Assembly (NCBI GenBank): GCA_029975295.1
Contig: JARKPK010000105.1
Coordinates: 1-50,549, forward strand
DNA length: 50,549 nucleotides
Source of the DNA: Thermoguttaceae bacterium
GTDB lineage: Bacteria > Planctomycetota > Planctomycetia > Pirellulales > Thermoguttaceae
Direction of reading: 5' to 3'
The notes beneath the pieces are model-generated. The model saw nothing but the letters and a program-made list of their open reading frames with translations. It did not search any database and had not been told where the DNA came from. The first letter of the stretch is position 1; every line of letters begins with the position of its first letter. The position numbers and the translations under genes are program-made. Positions 1,089 through 25,159 of the stretch are shown here, piece by piece.

Positions 1089-1673
1089 ATGAAGACTGTG
1101 TTCACAACCGGCGAGGCGGCCAAAATCTGCAAAGTGAGCCAACAGACCATTATTCGTTGCTTCGATTCGGGTCAGCTCAAGGGGTTTCGGGTGCCGGGAA
1201 GCCGCTTCCGCCGCATTCCCCGCGATCAGCTTTTCCTGTTCATGCGCGACAACGGCATCCCCACCGACGCCTTGGAAAGCGGCAAGCGGAAGGTGCTGAT
1301 TGTCGACGACGACCAAGAGCTGGTCGAATTGATCACCGATGTCCTCGACCGCGACGGGCGATTCGAGGTCAAGTCGGTCAATAACGGGTTCGACGCCGGC
1401 ATGATGGTCAAGGATTACCATCCCGACCTGATCGTGCTCGACGTGATGTTGCCCGACATCAACGGTAAGGAAGTGTGCCAACGCGTCCGCAGCGACAAGG
1501 CGCTCGACGACGTTCGAATCATCTGCATCTCGGGCATGGTGGAGGAAGACAAGGTCAAGGAGTTGCGCGACGCCGGAGCCAACGACTTCATGCACAAGCC
1601 GTTCGAAGTCGAACGACTGGTCGAGCGGATGTGCGCCCACCTCGATATGGAAGTGCCCGTATCGCGGTTCTAA
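1089..1673 (+). CDS. Response regulator with N-terminal excisionase-type HTH and C-terminal receiver
   Basis: 194 residues. Residues 1-57 form an excisionase/BldC-like winged HTH (TTGEAAKICKVSQQTIIR, then a wing around RVPGSRFRRIP), so it should bind DNA. Residues 68-190 form a CheY-like receiver with acidic pocket DDD at 73-75, phospho-acceptor D118 in LDVMLP, S148 and K170 in HKP. The domain order is the reverse of OmpR/NarL regulators. Likely role: a transcription factor controlled by phosphorylation, perhaps by the histidine kinase gene that follows at 2048. The ATG lies 12 bases after GAAGGGA and is the natural start of the HTH. The DNA target is unknown. Confidence 0.85.
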   Translation: MKTVFTTGEAAKICKVSQQTIIRCFDSGQLKGFRVPGSRFRRIPRDQLFLFMRDNGIPTDALESGKRKVLIVDDDQELVELITDVLDRDGRFEVKSVNNGFDAGMMVKDYHPDLIVLDVMLPDINGKEVCQRVRSDKALDDVRIICISGMVEEDKVKELRDAGANDFMHKPFEVERLVERMCAHLDMEVPVSRF

Positions 1674-2047: not shown

Positions 2048-2836
2048 GTGAGCGGTTCTGCGCCGGGGGGCGAACCCGACGATGCCGGCTCGCAACGCCT
2101 TGAGCAGCTCAAGCTGGAAGCCTTGGCCGATTTTGCGGCCGGGGCGGGCCACGAGATGAACAACCCGCTGGCGGTGATTGCCGGCCGGGCGCAGTTGCTC
2201 TTGAGCGACGAACCCGATCCCGAGCGTCGCGCCTCGTTGGCGCTGATATGGGCGCAGGCCCAGCGCGTTCACGAAATGATCGCCGATGCGATGCTCTTCG
2301 CTCGCCCCCCTGCTCCGCAATTCGAGCAAGTCGAATTGGTTGCGCTGCTCGGTCGCGTGCTCCGCGAGGCCGCTGCCGAGTTGCCGGAGCGAACCGTGCG
2401 GCTCGAGTGGGGCGAGGTCCAGCGGTCGGCCCGCAGCGATTCGGGCGTGCTTCTTGTGGGCCGCCTGCCCGATCGGCCCCTGTCGGCCCAGGCCGATCCT
2501 GATCAATTGACCGTCGTGTTCCGGGCGTTGCTGCGCAATGCGGTCGAGGCGGTGGGGCCGGGCGGTCGGGTTGAACTTTCGGCCCAGGGCGAAGCGGATC
2601 GGGTGATCGTCGAAATCGACGACGACGGCCCGGGCATTCCCGATGAGGCTCGCTCGCACGTCTTCAACCCGTTCTATTCCGGTCGGCAGGCCGGCCGGGG
2701 CCTGGGCATGGGCCTTTCCAAGGCGTGGCGGCTGGTCGGCCTGCACGGCGGGTCAATCACCGTGGACCGTTCGCCGCTGGGCGGAGCGCGTCTCCGCGTG
2801 GAAATTCCCTATCAGCCGTGTCGCATCGACGCATGA
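2048..2836 (+). CDS. Soluble histidine kinase (HisKA + HATPase_c)
   Basis: 262 residues from a GTG at 2048, chosen because GAGGAG sits 7 bases upstream; the frame is also open upstream to a GTG at 1916 without a good ribosome site. Residues 20-85 form the dimerisation/phospho-acceptor domain with H35 in GHEMNNPLAV. The ATPase domain follows, with an N box (LRNAVEA), G1 box (DDDGPGIPDE) and G2 box (GRGLGMGLS). No sensor domain or membrane segment is present, so the signal must come from a partner or from the cytoplasm. Its position after the HTH-receiver gene makes that protein a plausible partner, by inference only. Confidence 0.87.
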   Translation: MSGSAPGGEPDDAGSQRLEQLKLEALADFAAGAGHEMNNPLAVIAGRAQLLLSDEPDPERRASLALIWAQAQRVHEMIADAMLFARPPAPQFEQVELVALLGRVLREAAAELPERTVRLEWGEVQRSARSDSGVLLVGRLPDRPLSAQADPDQLTVVFRALLRNAVEAVGPGGRVELSAQGEADRVIVEIDDDGPGIPDEARSHVFNPFYSGRQAGRGLGMGLSKAWRLVGLHGGSITVDRSPLGGARLRVEIPYQPCRIDA

Positions 2837-5334: not shown

Positions 5335-6008
5335 CAACAACACTCCGGCTCGCGCGGGCCGCCCGGCGGAAGCAATTCCCGCAACGGGCAAGCCGCGCAC
5401 ATCGGCCGCTGTTTGCGGCAACATTCTTTGCCTACCCGCACCAACAGCGCATGGCACTCATTGTACAATGCCGGATCGTCGGGCAGCGAATCGACAAACA
5501 GCGTTTGCAGGGCGTGATAGTCGGCGTCGGCATCCGCCCAGCCGTGCCGGAAAGCCACGCGTTTGGTGTAGGCGTCGACAACGAACACCGCCTTGCCGCC
5601 CGCATAAAGCAGAATCGAGTCGGCCGTTTCCGGCCCAATGCCGTTGATCGCCAGCAATTGCTCGCGGAGCCGATCGACCGGTTGGGCGAACATCGTTTCC
5701 AGCGAGCCGCCATACTGCTCGACAATCAACGCCAGCAATCGCTTCAGCCGTTGCGCCTTCAGGCGGAAGTAGCCGGCAGGCCGCAACAACTCTTCGAGCT
5801 CGGCGGTGGGCAGGTCGTAAAGCCGCCGCAGATCGAGCAAGTCCTCTTGGCGCAAGTTGGCGATGGCCCGCTCGACGTTCCGCCAACTGGTGTTTTGGGT
5901 GAGCAAGGCGCCGACGATCACCTCGAAGGGGGTTTCGCCGGGCCACCAATGCTGCGGCCCATAGGCCTCAAACAGCAGCCGATAGGCTTTTAGCAATGTG
6001 CCCGCCAA
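5334..6008 (-). CDS. HhH-GPD DNA glycosylase / endonuclease III-like protein
   Basis: 224 residues if the TTG at 6008 is used; it lies 8 bases after GGGAGG. The frame extends upstream to 6149 with poor start signals. The HhH-GPD fold is clear: LLTQNTSW near residue 36, helix-hairpin-helix INGIGPETADSILLYA at 121-136, catalytic Asp D145 in VVDAYTKR. The Lys that makes endonuclease III bifunctional is Glu (E127), as in monofunctional members. The Fe-S region has C197-x6-C204-x2-C207, but the fourth Cys at its usual spacing is replaced by Leu; a CC pair ends the protein. Likely a base-excision-repair glycosylase. Coupled to the downstream sigma-54 activator, an unexpected pairing. Confidence 0.82.
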   Translation of the reverse strand: MAGTLLKAYRLLFEAYGPQHWWPGETPFEVIVGALLTQNTSWRNVERAIANLRQEDLLDLRRLYDLPTAELEELLRPAGYFRLKAQRLKRLLALIVEQYGGSLETMFAQPVDRLREQLLAINGIGPETADSILLYAGGKAVFVVDAYTKRVAFRHGWADADADYHALQTLFVDSLPDDPALYNECHALLVRVGKECCRKQRPMCAACPLRELLPPGGPREPECC

Positions 6009-18623: not shown

Positions 18624-19514
18624 TCAGCGCCGCACGAAACGGCGGCGGGCAGGGCCTCGCGGCACGTTGGTCGCCGGGGCGCTGACGGTCGGCTCGGGCG
18701 AACCGGTCAACGCATCGCCGGCGCGGCAGGCCGATAGGCGGGCCTCGATCTGCGCCGCATACTCCGGCGAAAGCTCGAAGCCGATGAATCGGCGTTCCAG
18801 CTTCTTGGCCACCGCCAAGGTTGTTCCGCTGCCCGCCATCGGGTCGAGCACGATCTCGCCCGGGTTGCTCGTGGCCCGAATGATTCGCCCGAGGAGTTGC
18901 TCGGGCATCTGACAGCCGTGCCAACCCTGCCGCTCTTTGAACGTGCCGCACACTCGCGGAAAGTACCAAGTGTCTTGATCGGCGGCAAACCCCTCGGGCA
19001 GGTCTTGCGGCCGCAAAATCCAAGTGTCGTCGGGAACGCGCCCCTTCGGGTTCGCCCGGTGGTCGTTGTACACCAACTGCCGCGCCGAGGGCACGCGGAT
19101 CGCTTCGTCGTTGAAGGTGAACTGTTTGGGATCTTTCGTCATCCAGAACAGATGGGCGTGCGATCGGGTGAACTTCGTGTCGCAATGCACGCCGAAGGTG
19201 TAATACCAAACGATCCACCCCCGGCACTGCAAACCAAGTTCGCGCTGCATCAGCACCTTCAGCTCGGCCGCGTATTCGTCGCCGATGGCCAGCCAAAACG
19301 CCCCGTCGGGCTTCAGCGTGCGCACCACTTCGCCCATCCAACTCTTGCACCAGTCGAGATACTCGTCGGCCCGGCGGCGGTCGTCGTAAACGTCGTACCG
19401 GTAACCAATGTTAAAGGGCGGATCGGCAAACGCCAAATCGACCGAACCGCTTTCGATCTCCGCCAAGCCCAGCAAACAGTCTTCGTTGTAAATCCGATCA
19501 ACTTCCTTGCTCAT
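18624..19514 (-). CDS. Orphan beta-class DNA methyltransferase (N6-adenine or N4-cytosine)
   Basis: 296 residues from the ATG at 19514; an in-frame ATG at 19535 is an alternative. The catalytic motif IV, DPPF at 31-34, comes before the AdoMet-binding motif [10 protein letters not shown] near residue 236, which is the beta-class order. DPPF favours N6-adenine but does not prove it. No restriction gene is adjacent, so it is an orphan, possibly with a regulatory role. It is not closely similar to the methyltransferase at 22502 (DPPF versus SPPY). A basic Arg-rich tail ends the protein. Confidence 0.87.
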
Positions 19515-19827
19515 CACGCCATCTCGCCGCGCCATCAATTATTAGGAAGGTTCGCCGTTCGCCCCCCTGCGCTTGTGGTGGGCCCGAACGGCAGCCGCCG
19601 GCCGAAAGCGTTCCGGCCGCAATGGCGCAAATGATAGCACAACCATCGCCCCGAGGCACGAGCCCGGCGATCGCGCCGCCGAAAAATAATCGCGAGCCCC
19701 TTTCGACAGCGGATGCCCGAACCGGCAGGCAACCGACAGCCATGCGCGGCCCGTGCGGGCATCTGCGATTTCACAACGGCACCGGGCGGCCGTGCAGCGC
19801 GGCCGAGGCACGGCCGTGGCGCCCCGC

Positions 19828-20802
19828 CTACCGCGGCGGTAAGCTGCCGGCCGCTGCCGCCCCGGCGGCCGTGGCCGGCGTTAGCGCCTCCGGATCGACC
19901 GTTTGGCGAATCTTCACCGAGAAATCGGGCGCATCGCGATAGAGCCAGGCGGCGTAGTTCACCCGCGCGCGGCGCTGAGTTTCGACGAACGAAAGCTCCG
20001 TATCCAACAGCCCCAAGTCGTAGGCCAACTCGGCCGAATAGCCGGGCAGCAGCACGCGGTAGTCGTAGGGAACCCGATCGGGAAAACACCGATTGATGTG
20101 GTTGCGAATGTTCGTCGTGCAGTTGTTCGTCAGCGTGTCGTAGAACTCGGGCTCGGCCGCCAGTTTGTTCACCCGATGCAGCACGTCTTCAAATAACTTG
20201 CGGGCCTGTTCCGGACGTGCCTTGGTGCGGTAGATATACACATTCGCCCGCCATTGCAAGCAGTTCTTCAGGATCAGGTCGCGTTCGTCGGCCAGCACAT
20301 ACATCAGTTCGTATTGACGGAAAAACCCTTTGATCGGGCTGTACTTTTCGCCGCGTTCCTTACGGATCTCGACAGAAAGCCCCACGTAGTCGCGATTTTC
20401 GAAGCCGAAGCTGAGCATCGTATGCGCAATGCCTGGCGTGTCGTTGAACGGCACCACGATGAAATCGACCGACGTCACTTGATCGAGATTGAAGGTTCGA
20501 TCGTAGTAATGCACATCGAAGTCGTCGATCGTGCGGTAGCGGATGTTGCGGATGTTGCGCACGGTGACTTCTCGACCGCGAAACTCGGCCGTGGGCAGCA
20601 CCGCCTGATCGGTCGTCCAATCACGATCGTTCGAGGGGATCAGCGTCTTAAGGAAGGGCCGTTCGGACCAGTCGGCCGGCGGCGGCCGATAGGCCACCGG
20701 CTCGATGCCTGTGGTCGAAATCGACGAGCAGCCGAGGCAGGCGGCAACCGCGGCCAAGATGGCAACGGCCGGCCAAGCAAAAAGGCGCTGGCAGCGGCCC
20801 AT
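19828..20802 (-). CDS. DUF4105-type lipoprotein
   Basis: 324 residues from the ATG at 20802 (the frame is open far upstream, but without a signal peptide). Residues 1-25 are a lipoprotein signal (FAWPAVAILAAVAAC) with a lipobox read as VAAC; a second Cys follows in LGCSS. The body matches the DUF4105 pattern I know from envelope proteins: VTVRNIRNIRYRT, HYYDRTFNLDQV, HTMLSFGF, then the conserved YDTLTNNCTTNIRNHIN with an NCT motif, and a YSAELAYDLGLLD end. The Cys and His suggest a papain-like or NlpC-like fold, but that is inference. Molecular function unknown. Confidence 0.8.
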   Translation of the reverse strand: MGRCQRLFAWPAVAILAAVAACLGCSSISTTGIEPVAYRPPPADWSERPFLKTLIPSNDRDWTTDQAVLPTAEFRGREVTVRNIRNIRYRTIDDFDVHYYDRTFNLDQVTSVDFIVVPFNDTPGIAHTMLSFGFENRDYVGLSVEIRKERGEKYSPIKGFFRQYELMYVLADERDLILKNCLQWRANVYIYRTKARPEQARKLFEDVLHRVNKLAAEPEFYDTLTNNCTTNIRNHINRCFPDRVPYDYRVLLPGYSAELAYDLGLLDTELSFVETQRRARVNYAAWLYRDAPDFSVKIRQTVDPEALTPATAAGAAAAGSLPPR

Positions 20803-21523
20803 TGGTCGAAAAGCGACGGGAAAGACGCACAGTGAGCCGACAGTTCGATCGCTTGACCCATTCACCCCAGCGATCCTCCAACCCGGCCGGCCTCCGATCG
20901 ACACGCAACGCTCGGGCGCGCAGGCCGGCCCTTCGCCGTCGGCAAACGACGGCGCGAATTCGCTCGGCCAAACGCGGCCCGATACTCTCACGCCCGCAGG
21001 CGACATCGACACACTCCGGCAACGCGGCGGATGCCCGGCACACGGACGGGCGGCACGTGCCGCCCTCGCGCGCATCCAAACGTTGCTGCCACTGTTACAT
21101 TCGCAAACGGCACGCGAAAACCCAGTGCTCGCGTCCTCCTGTTCCAGAGCCTCGACGATTGGTTCTTGCTCTGCCCCACAGTCCGGAACATTCCGTTCGC
21201 TAAGAACGGCTCGCTCGGCGCCTATTGCCGCCAACCTCCCCGACTTTCACCAAGCGCAGGGGGCTCCGCTGCCGCGGTCGAAACGGCACAAACCGAAACC
21301 GCGGCGAGAAAACCCTCTGCGGGGCGGTGCGGGTAGATAGCGTATTTGGGCGGGGTACGCAAGGCGAGTTTCGCTTCGCCCAACGATTTGTTAAGATGGC
21401 GGAATCGTCGCGGCCCAGCAGTGCTAGCAGTGCTACCGGCGACATTGCCCGCCGGTTTCGCCGACATCATCCTGCTTCCGTCGCCGCTGTCGGTCACCAA
21501 GGCCGAATTGCGCCAACTTCTTC

Positions 21524-21576
21524 GCCCTCTTGTGCCTTACGGCACCGCGATAGCCGAGCTATCGCGGCCACCCGGC
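21524..21576. repeat. Partial composite repeat with perfect 10-bp hairpin
   Basis: Contains CCGCGATAGC (21545-21554), loop CGA, GCTATCGCGG (21558-21567), a perfect palindrome. Its flanks (CTCTTGTGCCTTACGGCA before, CACCCGGC after) match the right-hand copy near 23810-23858 almost exactly. Confidence 0.85.
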
Positions 21577-21615
21577 CGCAAAACAAGCGGCTGCCACAGC
21601 AAACCTGGCGGGTGC

Positions 21616-21638
21616 CACGGCGGGCTTGTCCCGCCGTG
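21616..21638. repeat. Hairpin CACGGCGGG / CCCGCCGTG with CTTGT loop
   Basis: Arms 21616-21624 and 21630-21638 are perfectly complementary. The loop CTTGT is the reverse complement of the ACAAG loop in the neighbouring hairpins, so the element is the same type in the other orientation. Confidence 0.8.
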
Positions 21639-21669
21639 CTCGATCCTTACGGCCGAGTGAAGCCAAGTT

Positions 21670-21832
21670 CCTGCACTGCCGGACAAGCCGGCAGTGGCAC
21701 CCAATCGACCGATGCCCTCACCCTCCGGGCAGTGGCACACAATCGGCCGATGCTGCCCCATCGGCAGGGGCACGTTTCCGCCATCTTGTGCCTCACGGCC
21801 CCGCGATAGGCGAGCTATCGCGGCCGCCCGGC
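21670..21832. repeat. Composite repeat, left copy flanking the restriction-modification cassette
   Basis: About 163 bp. It starts with hairpin CACTGCCGG-ACAAG-CCGGCAGTG (21674-21696), continues through CAATCGGCCGATGCTGCCC, and ends with hairpin CCGCGATAG/CTATCGCGG (21801-21823). It aligns in direct orientation along its whole length with 23697-23858, with scattered differences. Confidence 0.85.
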
Positions 21833-21893
21833 GATCTCGCAACGACCCGATTTAGGTGCAAGACGCGCCGAGCCCTTACGTGCCGACGATGAT

Positions 21894-22505
21894 TCACGGC
21901 TCAATGCCCAAGAGCACCAACGGCACGGCCGGCACGCCACGGCCCTGACGAATTACGTTGTACAACTCGCCTTCGTAATAAGCCACGCCAGAACTCATCT
22001 GGCTTTGCAGCGATTTCATCGGCAGAATCTCGACGCCCACATCGATCTGATCGCCCACGTAGAAGGCCAAGTGCTTGACGAAGAGATCGTAGGCCACAAA
22101 CGCATATTTGCCGAATTGGACCTCGACGGCCACGCGCTCTTTGACGAAATCCGTTTGATTGTAACTGAAAATCGGCGTCTCTCCGGCCGATTCGATTTCG
22201 CGTTTCTGCTCGTCGCGGGGCATTGTCAGCGTCTTTCGGATAAGTCGCTCGTCGCGGGTCACCCAGTAGCTGACGCGGTTTTCGCACCAGTTTTGCGAGC
22301 GGAAGAGTTTGCGGAAGGCCGCGTTCATTGCGATCGGGCTGAAAAGCGTTCGCCCCTGCTTCGTTTTCTCTTTAGATTGTTTCGTGCGGCAGGCCGCGCC
22401 ATCGACAGCGGCAACGACCGATCGAATCTCCTCCCACAAACCGGCGCGATGCACCAAAAGGTACTCCAAACCGTTGAGGTGCGAGTAGGTTTCGACGATC
22501 TTCAT
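21894..22505 (-). CDS. Type II restriction endonuclease, BglII/BstYI family
   Basis: 203 residues. The sequence looks very close to the BstYI/BglII family as I remember it: MKIVETYSHLNGLEYL at the start, TKQSKEKTKQG near 41-51, and YYEGELYNVIRQGRGVPAVP near the end. The active-site pattern of BglII (Asp, nine residues on Glu, then Gln two further) is present as D119, E128 and Q130 in SYNQTDFVKERVAVEVQFGK. These enzymes cut GATC-centred sites (BglII AGATCT, BstYI RGATCY); which one applies here cannot be decided by eye. The ATG overlaps the methyltransferase stop by four bases (ATGA), so the toxic enzyme is made after the protecting one. The gene appears intact. Confidence 0.92.
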   Translation of the reverse strand: MKIVETYSHLNGLEYLLVHRAGLWEEIRSVVAAVDGAACRTKQSKEKTKQGRTLFSPIAMNAAFRKLFRSQNWCENRVSYWVTRDERLIRKTLTMPRDEQKREIESAGETPIFSYNQTDFVKERVAVEVQFGKYAFVAYDLFVKHLAFYVGDQIDVGVEILPMKSLQSQMSSGVAYYEGELYNVIRQGRGVPAVPLVLLGIEP

Positions 22506-23476
22506 TCCGGTTCCGCCCCTTCGAGTTTCAAGCCGGCTTGGATCGCGCCGATCGACGTTTCGGGTTCCTTCCATGGCGCGACCGTCAGCCGGTTTTGCGA
22601 CGTGCCGGGATCGTAAACCGGGCGATCCATCGGTCGGGTGCGCAACGTGCCTTCGAAGGCGCGCATGGTGCGCTCTTTCGCAATGCGAACATATTCTTCG
22701 ACGGTTTCCGCGCCCGCCCCGCGGCGTTGCCGCAGAATGGCGGCCGCGATCGTCGTGCCCGCTCCTAGAAACGGATCGAGCACCCAATCGCCGGGGTTCG
22801 AGAGAGCGAGCACCAACCGCTCGACCAGCTCGACCGGAAATTGACAAGGATGCTCCGTCTTTTCGACGTGGTTGTTCTTCACATTGGGAATAACCCAAAG
22901 ATCGCCCGGGTTCTTGCCCAGCGGATTGCAGGAATATTCGCCGGCGCGAGGCCCTTTGAAATGCTTCTTGCCCGGATATTTCTGCGGCACGCGCACCGCA
23001 TCGAGATTGAAAACGTAATCTTCGGTCTTTGTGAACCAGAGAATCGTTTCGTAGCGGCCGGAGAATCGCCGCGTGCAGTGCAGCCCGTGCTCGAAATGCC
23101 AAATAATGCGATTGCGGAGCCGCAGCCCCAACTGTGCAAAGACGGGATAAAGCACTGTGTCGAGGGGAACAATGGCCCCTTTATCGACGTAATTACCGAC
23201 CTGCCAGCAGATGCTGCCCCTCGGCGAAAGCGTGCGCACGCATTGGCGGATCACGCGGGATTGCTGCTCGACATACAGGTTGAGATCGAGCCTCTTCTCG
23301 TACTTCTTGCCGATATTGTACGGTGGCGAGGTTACAACGAGCTGAATAGATTCATCGGGCACACTGGCGAGAAAATCGAGACAGTCGCCGTGGAAAACGA
23401 CGGCCGACTCGGACAGCGCGAACAAATCGGCAATCCGGTGCTGCGGCGGAAACAAGCTCGTCGATTTCACTTCCAT
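22502..23476 (-). CDS. DNA methyltransferase of the BstYI/BglII-like restriction-modification system (N4-cytosine type)
   Basis: 324 residues. Catalytic motif SPPY at 50-53 (TSPPYNIGKKYE) precedes AdoMet motif I, DPFLGAGTT at 234-242: the beta-class order, with the SPPY form typical of N4-cytosine methyltransferases such as M.BglII. The central part holds the target-recognition region (about 120-215). It should methylate the same site that the overlapping endonuclease cuts. The ATG at 23476 has no clear ribosome site, so the message may be leaderless. The operon has no separate controller gene. Confidence 0.92.
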   Translation of the reverse strand: MEVKSTSLFPPQHRIADLFALSESAVVFHGDCLDFLASVPDESIQLVVTSPPYNIGKKYEKRLDLNLYVEQQSRVIRQCVRTLSPRGSICWQVGNYVDKGAIVPLDTVLYPVFAQLGLRLRNRIIWHFEHGLHCTRRFSGRYETILWFTKTEDYVFNLDAVRVPQKYPGKKHFKGPRAGEYSCNPLGKNPGDLWVIPNVKNNHVEKTEHPCQFPVELVERLVLALSNPGDWVLDPFLGAGTTIAAAILRQRRGAGAETVEEYVRIAKERTMRAFEGTLRTRPMDRPVYDPGTSQNRLTVAPWKEPETSIGAIQAGLKLEGAEPE

Positions 23477-23977
23477 AAGAAATGGCGTGAGAAAGCGTCC
23501 ACCAAAATGGCGGCGTGATTTTAGGACTCACAAGTATCGCGTGGCCGCGGGCGGTTGCGATCCGGACGGCGCCGGCCTCCTCGAATTCGCACGGGCGGGC
23601 GGTGGCGACGGAACCAGGAGGATACCGGCCAATCCGGCGGGCTACGCCACCGGCGGCACTGCCAGGCCTTTCAACCGCCTGTCAGTTTACCGAAAGCCTG
23701 CACTGCCGGACAAGCCGGCAGTGGCACGCAAACAGCCAATGCCGCCCTACCGGCAGTGGCAAACAATCGGCCGATGCTGCCCTGTCGAAAGTGTCGCACC
23801 TTTCCGCCCTCTTGCGCCTTACGGCACCGCGATAGCCGAGCTATCGCGGCCACCCGGCGGAGTTTCAGTCGGACAATTCCCGGACGCTCTCAAATAAAAT
23901 GCTTGCTCAAGCCCTCGTGGGCAACACAGATTACGACCGCTACCAAGTGCGATTGCAAATACTATTTCAACGGGCTG
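23477..23977. other. Gene-free region with the right-hand composite repeat
   Basis: 500 bases upstream of the restriction-modification operon. It must contain that operon's promoter; a TAAAAT on the minus strand near 23519 is the only hint. The composite repeat occupies 23697-23858. No coding frame is convincing. Confidence 0.55.
23697..23858. repeat. Composite repeat, right copy flanking the restriction-modification cassette
   Basis: Direct repeat of 21670-21832. Hairpin CACTGCCGG-ACAAG-CCGGCAGTG at 23701-23723, shared middle CAATCGGCCGATGCTGCCC, and perfect hairpin CCGCGATAGC-CGA-GCTATCGCGG at 23827-23849. Confidence 0.85.
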
Positions 23978-25159
23978 CTAGGCGCCCGAGTCGCGGACGC
24001 GGCGTCGGTACTGGGCGGGGGTCATGCCCAGTTGGGCCTTGAACACTTCGCCCAGATATTGGCGGTGGACGAAGCCCGCCCGATGGGCCACTTCGTCGAT
24101 GGGCAGGTCGGTCGAATCGAGCAATTCGCACACGCGGCGGAGGCGGACGCGGCAGATTTCGTCGTGGATGGTGCGCCCGAGGTGGCGGCGGAATCGTCGC
24201 TGAAGCGTGCTCCGCGATGCCGGCACCTGGGCCAGCACGTCGTCGGCGCCGATGCCGTCGCAGGCATGGCGGCGGATGAAGCTCAAAGCCCGAACCAGCA
24301 GCGGATCGTCCACGGCCAGCACGTCGCTCGAGAGCCGCGTCACCACGCCCAACGGCGGAACGTAGATCGGCCCCTCGGGCGGCGGCCCGCCCGACATCAT
24401 CCGATCGAGCAATTGCGCGCCGCGGTAGCCCACGTGAAAATGATCGGGCTCGACGCTGCTCAGCGGCGGATCGCAGATTTCGCACAGCGGCTCGTCGTTA
24501 TCGACGCCGACGACGGCCGCTTCTTCGGGCACGGCCACGCCCACCCGCCGGCAGGCTTCCAACAGCAGTTCCCCGCGAGGATCGTTGCAAACCATGATGC
24601 CCAACGGGCGCGGCAGGCCGGCCACCCATTGAGCCAAGTGGTTTTGCTGCCGTTCCCAGTCGCTGGCGCGGGCCGACTCAGCCGGCAGCAAACATTCGGC
24701 GCACTCGAAGCCCGCCCGACGCACTGCGGCCGCGAACGCCGCTTGTCGCGCCTCGGCCCAGGCCGCCCCGCTGATGCCGCAATAGCCGAACCGCCGGAAG
24801 CCGCGTTCCAACAGATGTTGAGCAGCCATCTCGGCCACGGCTCGATCGTCGGTATGCACCAGCGGCAGGCCGACGTCGGGCACCATCCCCAGCACATCCA
24901 CCGCCGGCAGGCCGGTGGCCAGCACCGCTCGGGCGATGCTCGGCGTTTGCACCCGAGCGATAATGCCGTCGCCGTTCCAATCGGCGATCCATTGCGGCAC
25001 GTCTTCTTCCAGCCCGCGCGGCTGGTGGTAGATCGCCCACGGGCCATGCTCGCGGACGTATCGGGCAATGCCGCGGAGGATGTTGCGTCCCGAGGCAAGC
25101 GAGGTTTCGACGATCAGGGCGACCTTTTTCGGGCTGCGCGATTGCACATTTCGTTGCAT
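23978..25159 (-). CDS. XylR-type AraC-family transcriptional regulator
   Basis: 393 residues; ATG at 25159 with AAAGG about 9 bases upstream. Residues 10-275 form a LacI/periplasmic-binding-protein-like sensor domain (KKVALIVETSLASGRNILRG at the start; HTDDRAVAEMAAQHLLERGFRRFGYCG; VVGVDNDEPLCE). Residues 285-393 form an AraC-type double HTH (SRSTLQRRFRRHLGRTIHDEI and PIDEVAHRAGFVHRQYLGEVFKAQLGMTPAQYRR). This is the architecture of E. coli XylR, which binds a sugar and activates sugar-use genes. Divergent from the GH2 gene, it probably controls that enzyme in response to a sugar product. Confidence 0.9.
   Translation of the reverse strand: MQRNVQSRSPKKVALIVETSLASGRNILRGIARYVREHGPWAIYHQPRGLEEDVPQWIADWNGDGIIARVQTPSIARAVLATGLPAVDVLGMVPDVGLPLVHTDDRAVAEMAAQHLLERGFRRFGYCGISGAAWAEARQAAFAAAVRRAGFECAECLLPAESARASDWERQQNHLAQWVAGLPRPLGIMVCNDPRGELLLEACRRVGVAVPEEAAVVGVDNDEPLCEICDPPLSSVEPDHFHVGYRGAQLLDRMMSGGPPPEGPIYVPPLGVVTRLSSDVLAVDDPLLVRALSFIRRHACDGIGADDVLAQVPASRSTLQRRFRRHLGRTIHDEICRVRLRRVCELLDSTDLPIDEVAHRAGFVHRQYLGEVFKAQLGMTPAQYRRRVRDSGA

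What the first reader, a model, noticed from the sequence alone, without database searches (positions are those of the whole stretch)
21670..23858. BstYI/BglII-like restriction-modification operon framed by ~163-bp direct repeats
The endonuclease/methyltransferase pair (21894-23476) lies inside a 1.86-kb segment bounded by two directly repeated composite elements that align over their whole length (21670-21832 and 23697-23858). A third partial copy lies just outside at 21524-21576. This layout suggests the cassette was inserted by, or could be lost through, recombination between repeats, with no transposase in sight. Seen: repeats and gene pattern. Known: restriction-modification genes move often. 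Inferred: repeat-mediated mobility.
Basis: partly seen in the sequence, partly recalled or inferred. Interest (0 to 1): 0.75.

Follow-up and report, generated by a model that had tools for sequence, protein, structure and literature searches.

The report
Restriction genes amid dispersed palindromic repeats
A probably foreign BstYI-type DNA-cutting and DNA-protecting gene pair sits between two look-alike repeats, but those repeats belong to a family scattered through the genome, with matching transposase genes elsewhere, so they more likely mark where the pair landed than what moves it.

Summary
In detail: an intact BstYI-type R-M operon (M 22502-23476, R 21894-22505, minus strand) lies between direct repeats 21670-21832 and 23697-23858 (84% identical). 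Repeat-mediated mobility is mostly not supported. The repeats combine two dispersed palindromes, A and B; the right copy gives 55 matches in this 5.0-Mb genome, and 71 of 78 palindromes in fetched stretches are intergenic. Each palindrome also flanks, inverted, a REP-associated tyrosine transposase (RAYT) gene elsewhere: C85 for A, C178 for B. The framing copies are not each other's closest relatives; a sister tree is rejected by the AU test on 8 full-length copies (p=0.033), not on all 14 (p=0.094). The left copy is half of a longer array. Low GC and relatives in many phyla point to horizontal arrival. Best reading: a foreign R-M operon in a REP-rich gap. No empty-site genome was available. 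Side result: 5 of 64 other BstYI-type loci have close direct repeats, against 2 of 366 control intervals, in line with published insertion by target duplication. Known parts, mildly interesting combination.

The parts
21894..22505 (-). R gene: BstYI-type restriction endonuclease, 203 aa, intact
   Evidence: PF09195 E 8.1e-34; PDB 1sdo BstYI E 2.5e-93 over residues 1-203 of both; 135 of 203 identical; PADLOC REase_II E 4.7e-97
22502..23476 (-). M gene: N6/N4 DNA methyltransferase, 324 aa, upstream of R and overlapping it by ATGA; contains TSPPYNIG (SPPY, recalled as typical of N4-cytosine enzymes)
   Evidence: PF01555 E 1.1e-53; nearest solved chain RsrI methylase E 3.5e-40; sequence
21523..21832 (+).
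   Evidence: matches L138 (C14) over 305 columns and L141 (C174) over 257, both at 77%; both of those lie at contig ends
21543..21572 (+). Palindrome B (CCGCGATAG..CTATCGCGG)
   Evidence: DNA hairpin fold z -4.15
21613..21638 (-). Palindrome A' (variant of A with both stem arms changed)
   Evidence: fold z -2.17
21674..21699 (+). Palindrome A (CACTGCCGG..CCGGCAGTG)
   Evidence: fold z -3.95
21799..21828 (+). Palindrome B, 3 mismatches
23697..23858 (+).
   Evidence: A at 23701-23726, B at 23825-23854; fold z -4.16 and -2.63
21424..21485 (+). Arm of a 62-base inverted pair (79%) outside the left array
23604..23665 (-). Other arm of that inverted pair, just before the right array
19828..20802 (-). 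Left neighbour gene, Lnb_N domain protein
   Evidence: PF13387 E 1.3e-38; gene limits from my codon model
23978..25159 (-). Right neighbour gene, AraC/XylR-type regulator
   Evidence: PF13377 and PF12833; gene limits from my codon model

Best explanation
A horizontally acquired, intact BstYI-type (probably RGATCY) restriction-modification operon lies in a long intergenic gap that also holds several REP-type (repetitive extragenic palindrome) arrays. The framing repeats are two modules of a dispersed composite of two palindrome families, A and B. Each family has a REP-associated tyrosine transposase (RAYT) gene between inverted copies elsewhere in the genome, and these transposases presumably spread the palindromes. 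Most likely the operon landed inside or beside an existing array, where A-B modules already stood head to tail as they do at other loci, so the direct repeats are the split ends of that array and not a product or motor of the insertion. Shown: dispersal, palindromes, RAYT genes between inverted A or B copies, tandem A-B modules elsewhere, low GC, intact reading frames. Inferred: the order of events, RAYT action, restriction activity and specificity.
For: Dispersal: 55 matches of the right copy in the genome; 14 A-B composites compared, 12 of them outside the window, 8 of the 14 full-length. Intergenic by my codon-model gene calls: 71 of 78 A/B palindromes in 31 sources (window, 29 fetched stretches chosen because they held matches, and L163). 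RAYTs: 3 Y1_Tnp matches in the genome. The C85 gene lies between A copies at 1483-1508 (minus) and 2177-2202 (plus); the C178 gene lies between a minus and a plus B copy. Both pass the NCBIfam cut-off for REP-associated tyrosine transposase (85.9 and 113.1 bits, cut-off 80); the third, on C124, does not (59.6) and has no A or B in its 3.3-kb stretch. Tandem modules with no gene between them: A-B-A-B on C157 and A-B-A-A'-A-B on C17. Non-sister copies: left nearest to C174 (145 of 163), right nearest to C17b (117 of 127, a shortened copy) and then, of full-length copies, C157b (133 of 150); each other 138 of 160; AU test rejects sisterhood on the 8 full-length copies, p=0.033. Foreign origin: 58.4% GC against a mean of 64.7 (sd 2.5) for 487 sliding windows of the same size, of which only 1 is as low; 515 relatives of R, of which the best 80, at 72-81%, come from many phyla.
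Against: Sisterhood of the framing copies is not rejected with all 14 copies (AU p=0.094) or by KH and SH tests on the full-length set (p=0.064). Close direct repeats are commoner around this R-M type than around control intervals (5 of 64 other loci against 2 of 366), so framing may not be coincidence. Codon usage of the operon is only mildly unusual (M sixth lowest of 38 genes, R not in the lowest eight). No inter-module spacer shared by both sides of the operon was found that would fix the insertion point. The longer arrays on C14 and C174 lie at contig ends, so what follows them is unseen. My gene caller missed the C85 RAYT gene, so 'intergenic' is approximate. I did not compute how often chance would frame a gene pair. 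No empty-site genome was available.
Confidence: 0.62

Rival explanations
1. Insertion with long target duplication: the operon inserted into a REP module and duplicated about 160 bases of it, and the two copies then diverged.
For: Direct orientation and near-complete length match. The same R-M type has close direct repeats of at least 34 bits in 6 of 65 usable loci including this one, inverted 0 of 65, cross-locus 0 of 192, gene-bounded controls 2 of 366. In two of the three other loci checked genome-wide the repeat is confined to the operon's two borders: a perfect 33-base hairpin in L108 (2 matches in the genome) and a 64-base stretch in L055 (besides one weak 22-base match). Literature: insertion with long target duplication is mentioned for R-M genes in passages of PMC3031569.
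Against: Each copy has a nearer relative elsewhere and the sister tree is rejected by the AU test at p=0.033 on full-length copies (0.094 on all). The left copy shares a stretch with C174 that the right copy lacks (alignment). Tandem A-B modules exist on C157 and C17 without a gene between them.
Confidence: 0.15
2. Repeat-mediated mobility: the operon came in, or can leave, by homologous recombination between REP arrays, or was carried as a RAYT-mobilised unit.
For: Direct repeats sharing exact blocks of 31 and 20 bases. RAYT genes that go with both palindromes are in the genome. REP elements are described as hot spots for IS transposition (abstract of PMC1525189). In L091 the same R-M type is also framed by a dispersed repeat.
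Against: Identity is only 84% with short exact blocks. The genome has no second BglII-type endonuclease gene. REPtrons are said not to appear to transpose as a unit (passage of PMC6006769). In L108 and L055 the framing repeats are not dispersed.
Confidence: 0.13
3. The operon arrived first in an ordinary gap and REP modules were added on both sides later, independently.
For: The palindromes settle mainly between genes (71 of 78); the two arrays have different nearest relatives.
Against: It needs two separate additions in the same orientation close to the operon; a pre-existing tandem array needs one insertion.
Confidence: 0.1

Closest known systems
BstYI (PDB 1sdo, 1vrr, 2p0j) and the BglII/BstYI endonuclease family PF09195, with an upstream N6_N4 methyltransferase
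   Same: Full-length match 1-203 to 1-203, 135 of 203 identical; M upstream of R on the same strand in 81 of 82 loci compared
   Different: No structural difference seen; activity and specificity not tested
REP/BIME elements with REP-associated tyrosine transposases (RAYT, REPtron)
   Same: Short palindromes, mainly intergenic, clustered, with RAYT genes between inverted copies
   Different: Fewer copies counted than the more than 100 per genome called usual in the abstract of PMC2817692 (seen in the listing); A lacks the GT(A/G)G head; two palindrome families with separate RAYTs recur joined in one composite
Insertion with long target duplication of R-M genes (Nobusato 2000 and Furuta 2010: only their reference entries were seen, content recalled)
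   Same: R-M genes between direct repeats without a transposase
   Different: Here the repeats are dispersed and probably not sister copies
Rickettsia palindromic elements and other intragenic REPs (passages of PMC3733652)
   Same: A palindromes also lie in frame inside three protein genes of this genome
   Different: Different sequence family and, judging by the genome's look, a different phylum

Membership tests
BstYI/BglII type II endonuclease (PF09195) | Score over the curated family cut-off and full-length alignment to BstYI | tested here: met
   117.1 bits against cut-off 26; 1sdo 1-203
BstYI/BglII type II endonuclease (PF09195) | Cleaves RGATCY | not testable with these tools
   no assay; BstYI is compared as an isoschizomer for RGATCY in passages of PMC10734518
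Type II R-M system | Endonuclease gene next to a methyltransferase gene | tested here: met
   M and R overlap by ATGA; M upstream of R, same strand, in 81 of 82 loci, none found in the other
REP / BIME | Short imperfect palindromes able to form hairpins | tested here: met
   eight stretches folded, z -2.17 to -4.84
REP / BIME | Mainly extragenic | tested here: met
   71 of 78 in fetched stretches, by my gene calls
REP / BIME | High copy number (usually over 100 per genome) | tested here: inconclusive
   38 A-type and 10 B-type matches at up to 3 mismatches; looser variants were not counted genome-wide and arrays at contig ends make this a lower bound
REP / BIME | GT(A/G)G head next to the palindrome | tested here: inconclusive
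   B read on its minus strand is GTGG followed by the stem; A has GTGC (sequences; consensus from passages)
RAYT / REPtron | Y1 transposase of the REP-associated type flanked by two inverted REPs | tested here: met
   C85 with A and C178 with B; 2 of the 3 Y1_Tnp genes found
RAYT / REPtron | The transposase cuts and spreads these palindromes | not testable with these tools
   inferred from the association only
Insertion with long target duplication | The two repeats derive from one target sequence | tested here: inconclusive
   nearest relatives lie elsewhere; AU p=0.033 on 8 copies, 0.094 on 14; KH and SH not significant
[quoted passage not shown]
   one genome of the genus held; flanking genes not together in the 9 stretches fetched

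The most novel reading that the evidence does not exclude
BstYI-type R-M cassettes have a habitual, transposase-free way of entering chromosomes that leaves direct repeats of about 30-160 bases, and in this planctomycete-like genome REP arrays cut by RAYTs served as the entry point. The REPs would then be landing sites for defence genes, in arrays fed by two different RAYTs.
Probability: 0.1. Interest if true: 0.6.

Novelty: new member of a known kind. Interest (0 to 1): 0.3.

Why it matters
It shows how a striking 'framed cassette' can come from a genome-wide repeat family, and which checks separate the two: copy count, nearest-relative test, and a search for the repeat's own transposase. It also adds two palindrome families with matched RAYT genes that recur joined in one composite. 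The side result, an excess of close direct repeats around BstYI-type operons, is a testable hint about how restriction genes enter chromosomes without their own transposase.

Tried and rejected
Local duplication of the repeat by the insertion: weakened by the nearest-relative and AU tests, not excluded. Mapping the insertion point by one inter-module spacer shared by both sides of the operon: nothing found. Empty site in relatives: regulator orthologues at 65-68% (3 stretches, L154-L156) and Lnb_N orthologues at 54-69% (6 stretches, L157-L162) lie without the other flank; these 9 are a small part of the hits, so synteny in the rest was not looked at. Repeats around the G007 copy of the operon: no A or B palindrome in the 20-kb stretch L043 at up to 4 mismatches. 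A second R-M pair at 18624-20089: the upstream open frame has no family match in Pfam or PADLOC and overlaps the Lnb_N gene, so the methyltransferase at 18624-19538 is probably an orphan. Integron-type ends as the cause of the L091 repeats: considered, not tested beyond a fold.

On the direct-repeat control: the 34-bit threshold was chosen after seeing the distribution. At 22 bits the counts are 9 of 65 against 23 of 366, at 26 bits 6 against 6, at 30 and 34 bits 6 against 2. The 65 loci are those of 82 (80 outside loci, G007, the window) with a detected M and 400 bases on both sides; the 80 outside loci are the best of 515. Controls came from 61 of the 65. An earlier, coarser control gave 3 of 53 against 1 of 159 at 50 bits. 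Genome-wide uniqueness of the framing repeat was checked for L091, L108 and L055 only, not for L045 and L056. The literature searches cover open-licence PubMed Central papers only, and I claim no absence from print. The glycosyltransferase on C5 had no solved relative at E <= 1e-20.

Full report
What is there. The window is contig C159 of a 5,011,136-base genome in 190 contigs. Two genes on the minus strand overlap by ATGA: M at 22502-23476 and R at 21894-22505. R is a BstYI orthologue: PF09195 E 8.1e-34, PDB 1sdo E 2.5e-93 over its whole length, 135 of 203 residues identical. M is an N6/N4 methyltransferase whose nearest solved relative is RsrI methylase. Its TSPPYNIG motif suggests an N4-cytosine enzyme (recalled).

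The repeats are a dispersed family. The right copy with short margins gives 55 matches in the genome, in both orientations, with 40 of 65 first-look candidates scored. It is built of two palindromes, A (CACTGCCGG..CCGGCAGTG) and B (CCGCGATAG..CTATCGCGG), about 125 bases apart start to start. Pieces of A and B give 38 and 10 matches at up to 3 mismatches, against none for reversed controls. Eight single-stranded stretches with A, A' or B fold into hairpins (z -2.17 to -4.84). In the window, 29 stretches fetched because they held matches, and L163, 71 of 78 palindromes lie between genes called by my codon model; that model missed at least one real gene (the C85 RAYT), and two of the seven intragenic cases (C125) were not examined. 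Matches to the right copy were found in 23 of 100 other genomes of the family, with at most eight candidates scored per genome and most matches covering only one half.

The repeats have transposases elsewhere. The genome has three Y1_Tnp matches, none in the window. The C85 gene lies between two inverted A copies, and the C178 gene between two inverted B copies. Both exceed the NCBIfam cut-off for REP-associated tyrosine transposases; the third, on C124, scores 59.6 against a cut-off of 80. The two proteins are 34% identical over 168 columns. [quoted passage not shown] So A and B look like two REP families, each with a RAYT, that recur joined in one composite. That RAYTs spread them is inferred.

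The framing pair is probably not a matched pair. Among 14 composites, the left copy is closest to one on C174 (145 of 163). The right copy is closest to a shortened one on C17 (117 of 127) and, of full-length ones, to one on C157 (133 of 150); left and right match at 138 of 160. A tree that forces them to be sisters is rejected by the AU test with the eight full-length copies (p=0.033) but not with all 14 (p=0.094), and KH and SH tests do not reject it (p=0.064 and 0.098). The left repeat is part of a longer array, B-A'-A-B, that matches C14 over 305 columns and C174 over 257, and the stretch between its first B and its A is shared with several loci. Those two arrays lie at contig ends, so what follows them is unseen. 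On C157 (A-B-A-B) and C17 (A-B-A-A'-A-B), modules stand head to tail with no gene between. An operon that lands in such an array is framed by direct repeats without any duplication.

The operon is probably foreign. The segment between the repeats has 58.4% GC; of 487 sliding windows of its size (step 100, mean 64.7, sd 2.5) only one is as low. Codon usage is only mildly unusual. R has 515 relatives in the species-level genome collection, and the best 80 (72-81%) come from many phyla. It also occurs in 5 plasmid records, 4 records of 2 Burkholderia phages, and 7 viral contigs. Of 39 other genomes searched with M, one (G007, 73%) has a close relative. There the neighbours differ: across the 60 kb fetched, only the operon, the second methyltransferase and one more window gene match well. 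Its R gene is frame-shifted in the record.

Other framed places. Palindrome clusters lie within about 3 kb of each other at several places: around the two RAYT genes, around genes on C85 of which one has a phage tail-completion domain, and on C5, C103 and C19. Framing as such is thus not special to the R-M operon; I did not compute its chance rate.

A control across the R-M type. In 65 loci (of 82) with a detected M and 400 bases on both sides, 6 have a direct repeat of at least 34 bits between the two flanks: this window, L108, L091, L056, L045 and L055. None of the 65 has an inverted one, and none of 192 cross-locus pairings reaches the score. Of 366 other gene-bounded intervals in 61 of these loci, 2 do; without the window, 5 of 64 against 2 of 366, Fisher p=0.001. 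The threshold was chosen after the fact; at 26 bits it is 6 of 65 against 6 of 366. L108 has a perfect 33-base terminator-like hairpin on both sides, present only there in its genome at up to 3 mismatches. L055's repeat is also found only at the two borders, besides a weak 22-base match. L056's is a piece of a ribD-like gene start (gene name recalled). L091's repeat is dispersed (15 matches at E <= 1 in its genome). L045 and L056 were not checked genome-wide. This fits insertion with long target duplication, mentioned for R-M genes in a passage of PMC3031569. The main survey, Furuta 2010, was not held; only its reference entry was seen, and what it found is recalled.

What remains open. Only one genome of the genus is held. 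Orthologues of the two flanking genes do not sit together in the 9 stretches fetched, so the empty-site test could not be made. Restriction activity, specificity and RAYT action are untested.

Verdict. The layout is real and explained mostly by known things: a mobile BstYI-type R-M operon in a REP-rich gap. Repeat-mediated mobility stays possible but is not the best reading.

Noticed in passing
L128:1794-3332 (C103), L125:2341-3738 (C5), L132:2234-3544 (C74): A palindromes lie in frame inside three protein genes: a MurA-like gene (about 80 extra residues against solved MurA chains), a glycosyltransferase between its two Pfam halves, and a heptosyltransferase (about 100 extra residues). All five copies examined are read in the same frame and give GATAGLPGSA-like peptides. 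Intragenic REPs are known in other bacteria (passages of PMC3733652).
   Followed up: partly
C17 and C157 (L135, L136): Two loci share the same order of two distinct A-B modules (C17a with C157a, C17b with C157b in the trees), as if whole arrays are copied.
   Followed up: no
window 18624-19538: A second N6/N4 methyltransferase gene about 2.4 kb from the operon, without a recognisable endonuclease partner; a 63% relative lies on the same G007 contig as its R-M operon, about 31 kb away.
   Followed up: partly
L043 near 14135 (G007): The R gene of the closest family relative is frame-shifted in the record, either a decayed endonuclease or an assembly error.
   Followed up: no
window 23892-23972 and L146:391-471: An 81-base stretch just right of the right array recurs at 84% identity on C129; it is not A or B.
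   Followed up: no
L091:3720-3790 and 5669-5735: In a Cloacimonadota record the BstYI-type operon is also framed by a dispersed repeat of about 70 bases, with 15 matches at E <= 1 in its genome.
   Followed up: partly
G000 contig ends (C157, C14, C17, C174, C105, C179): Palindrome arrays lie close to contig ends, so they probably break the assembly, and the copy count is a lower bound.
   Followed up: no
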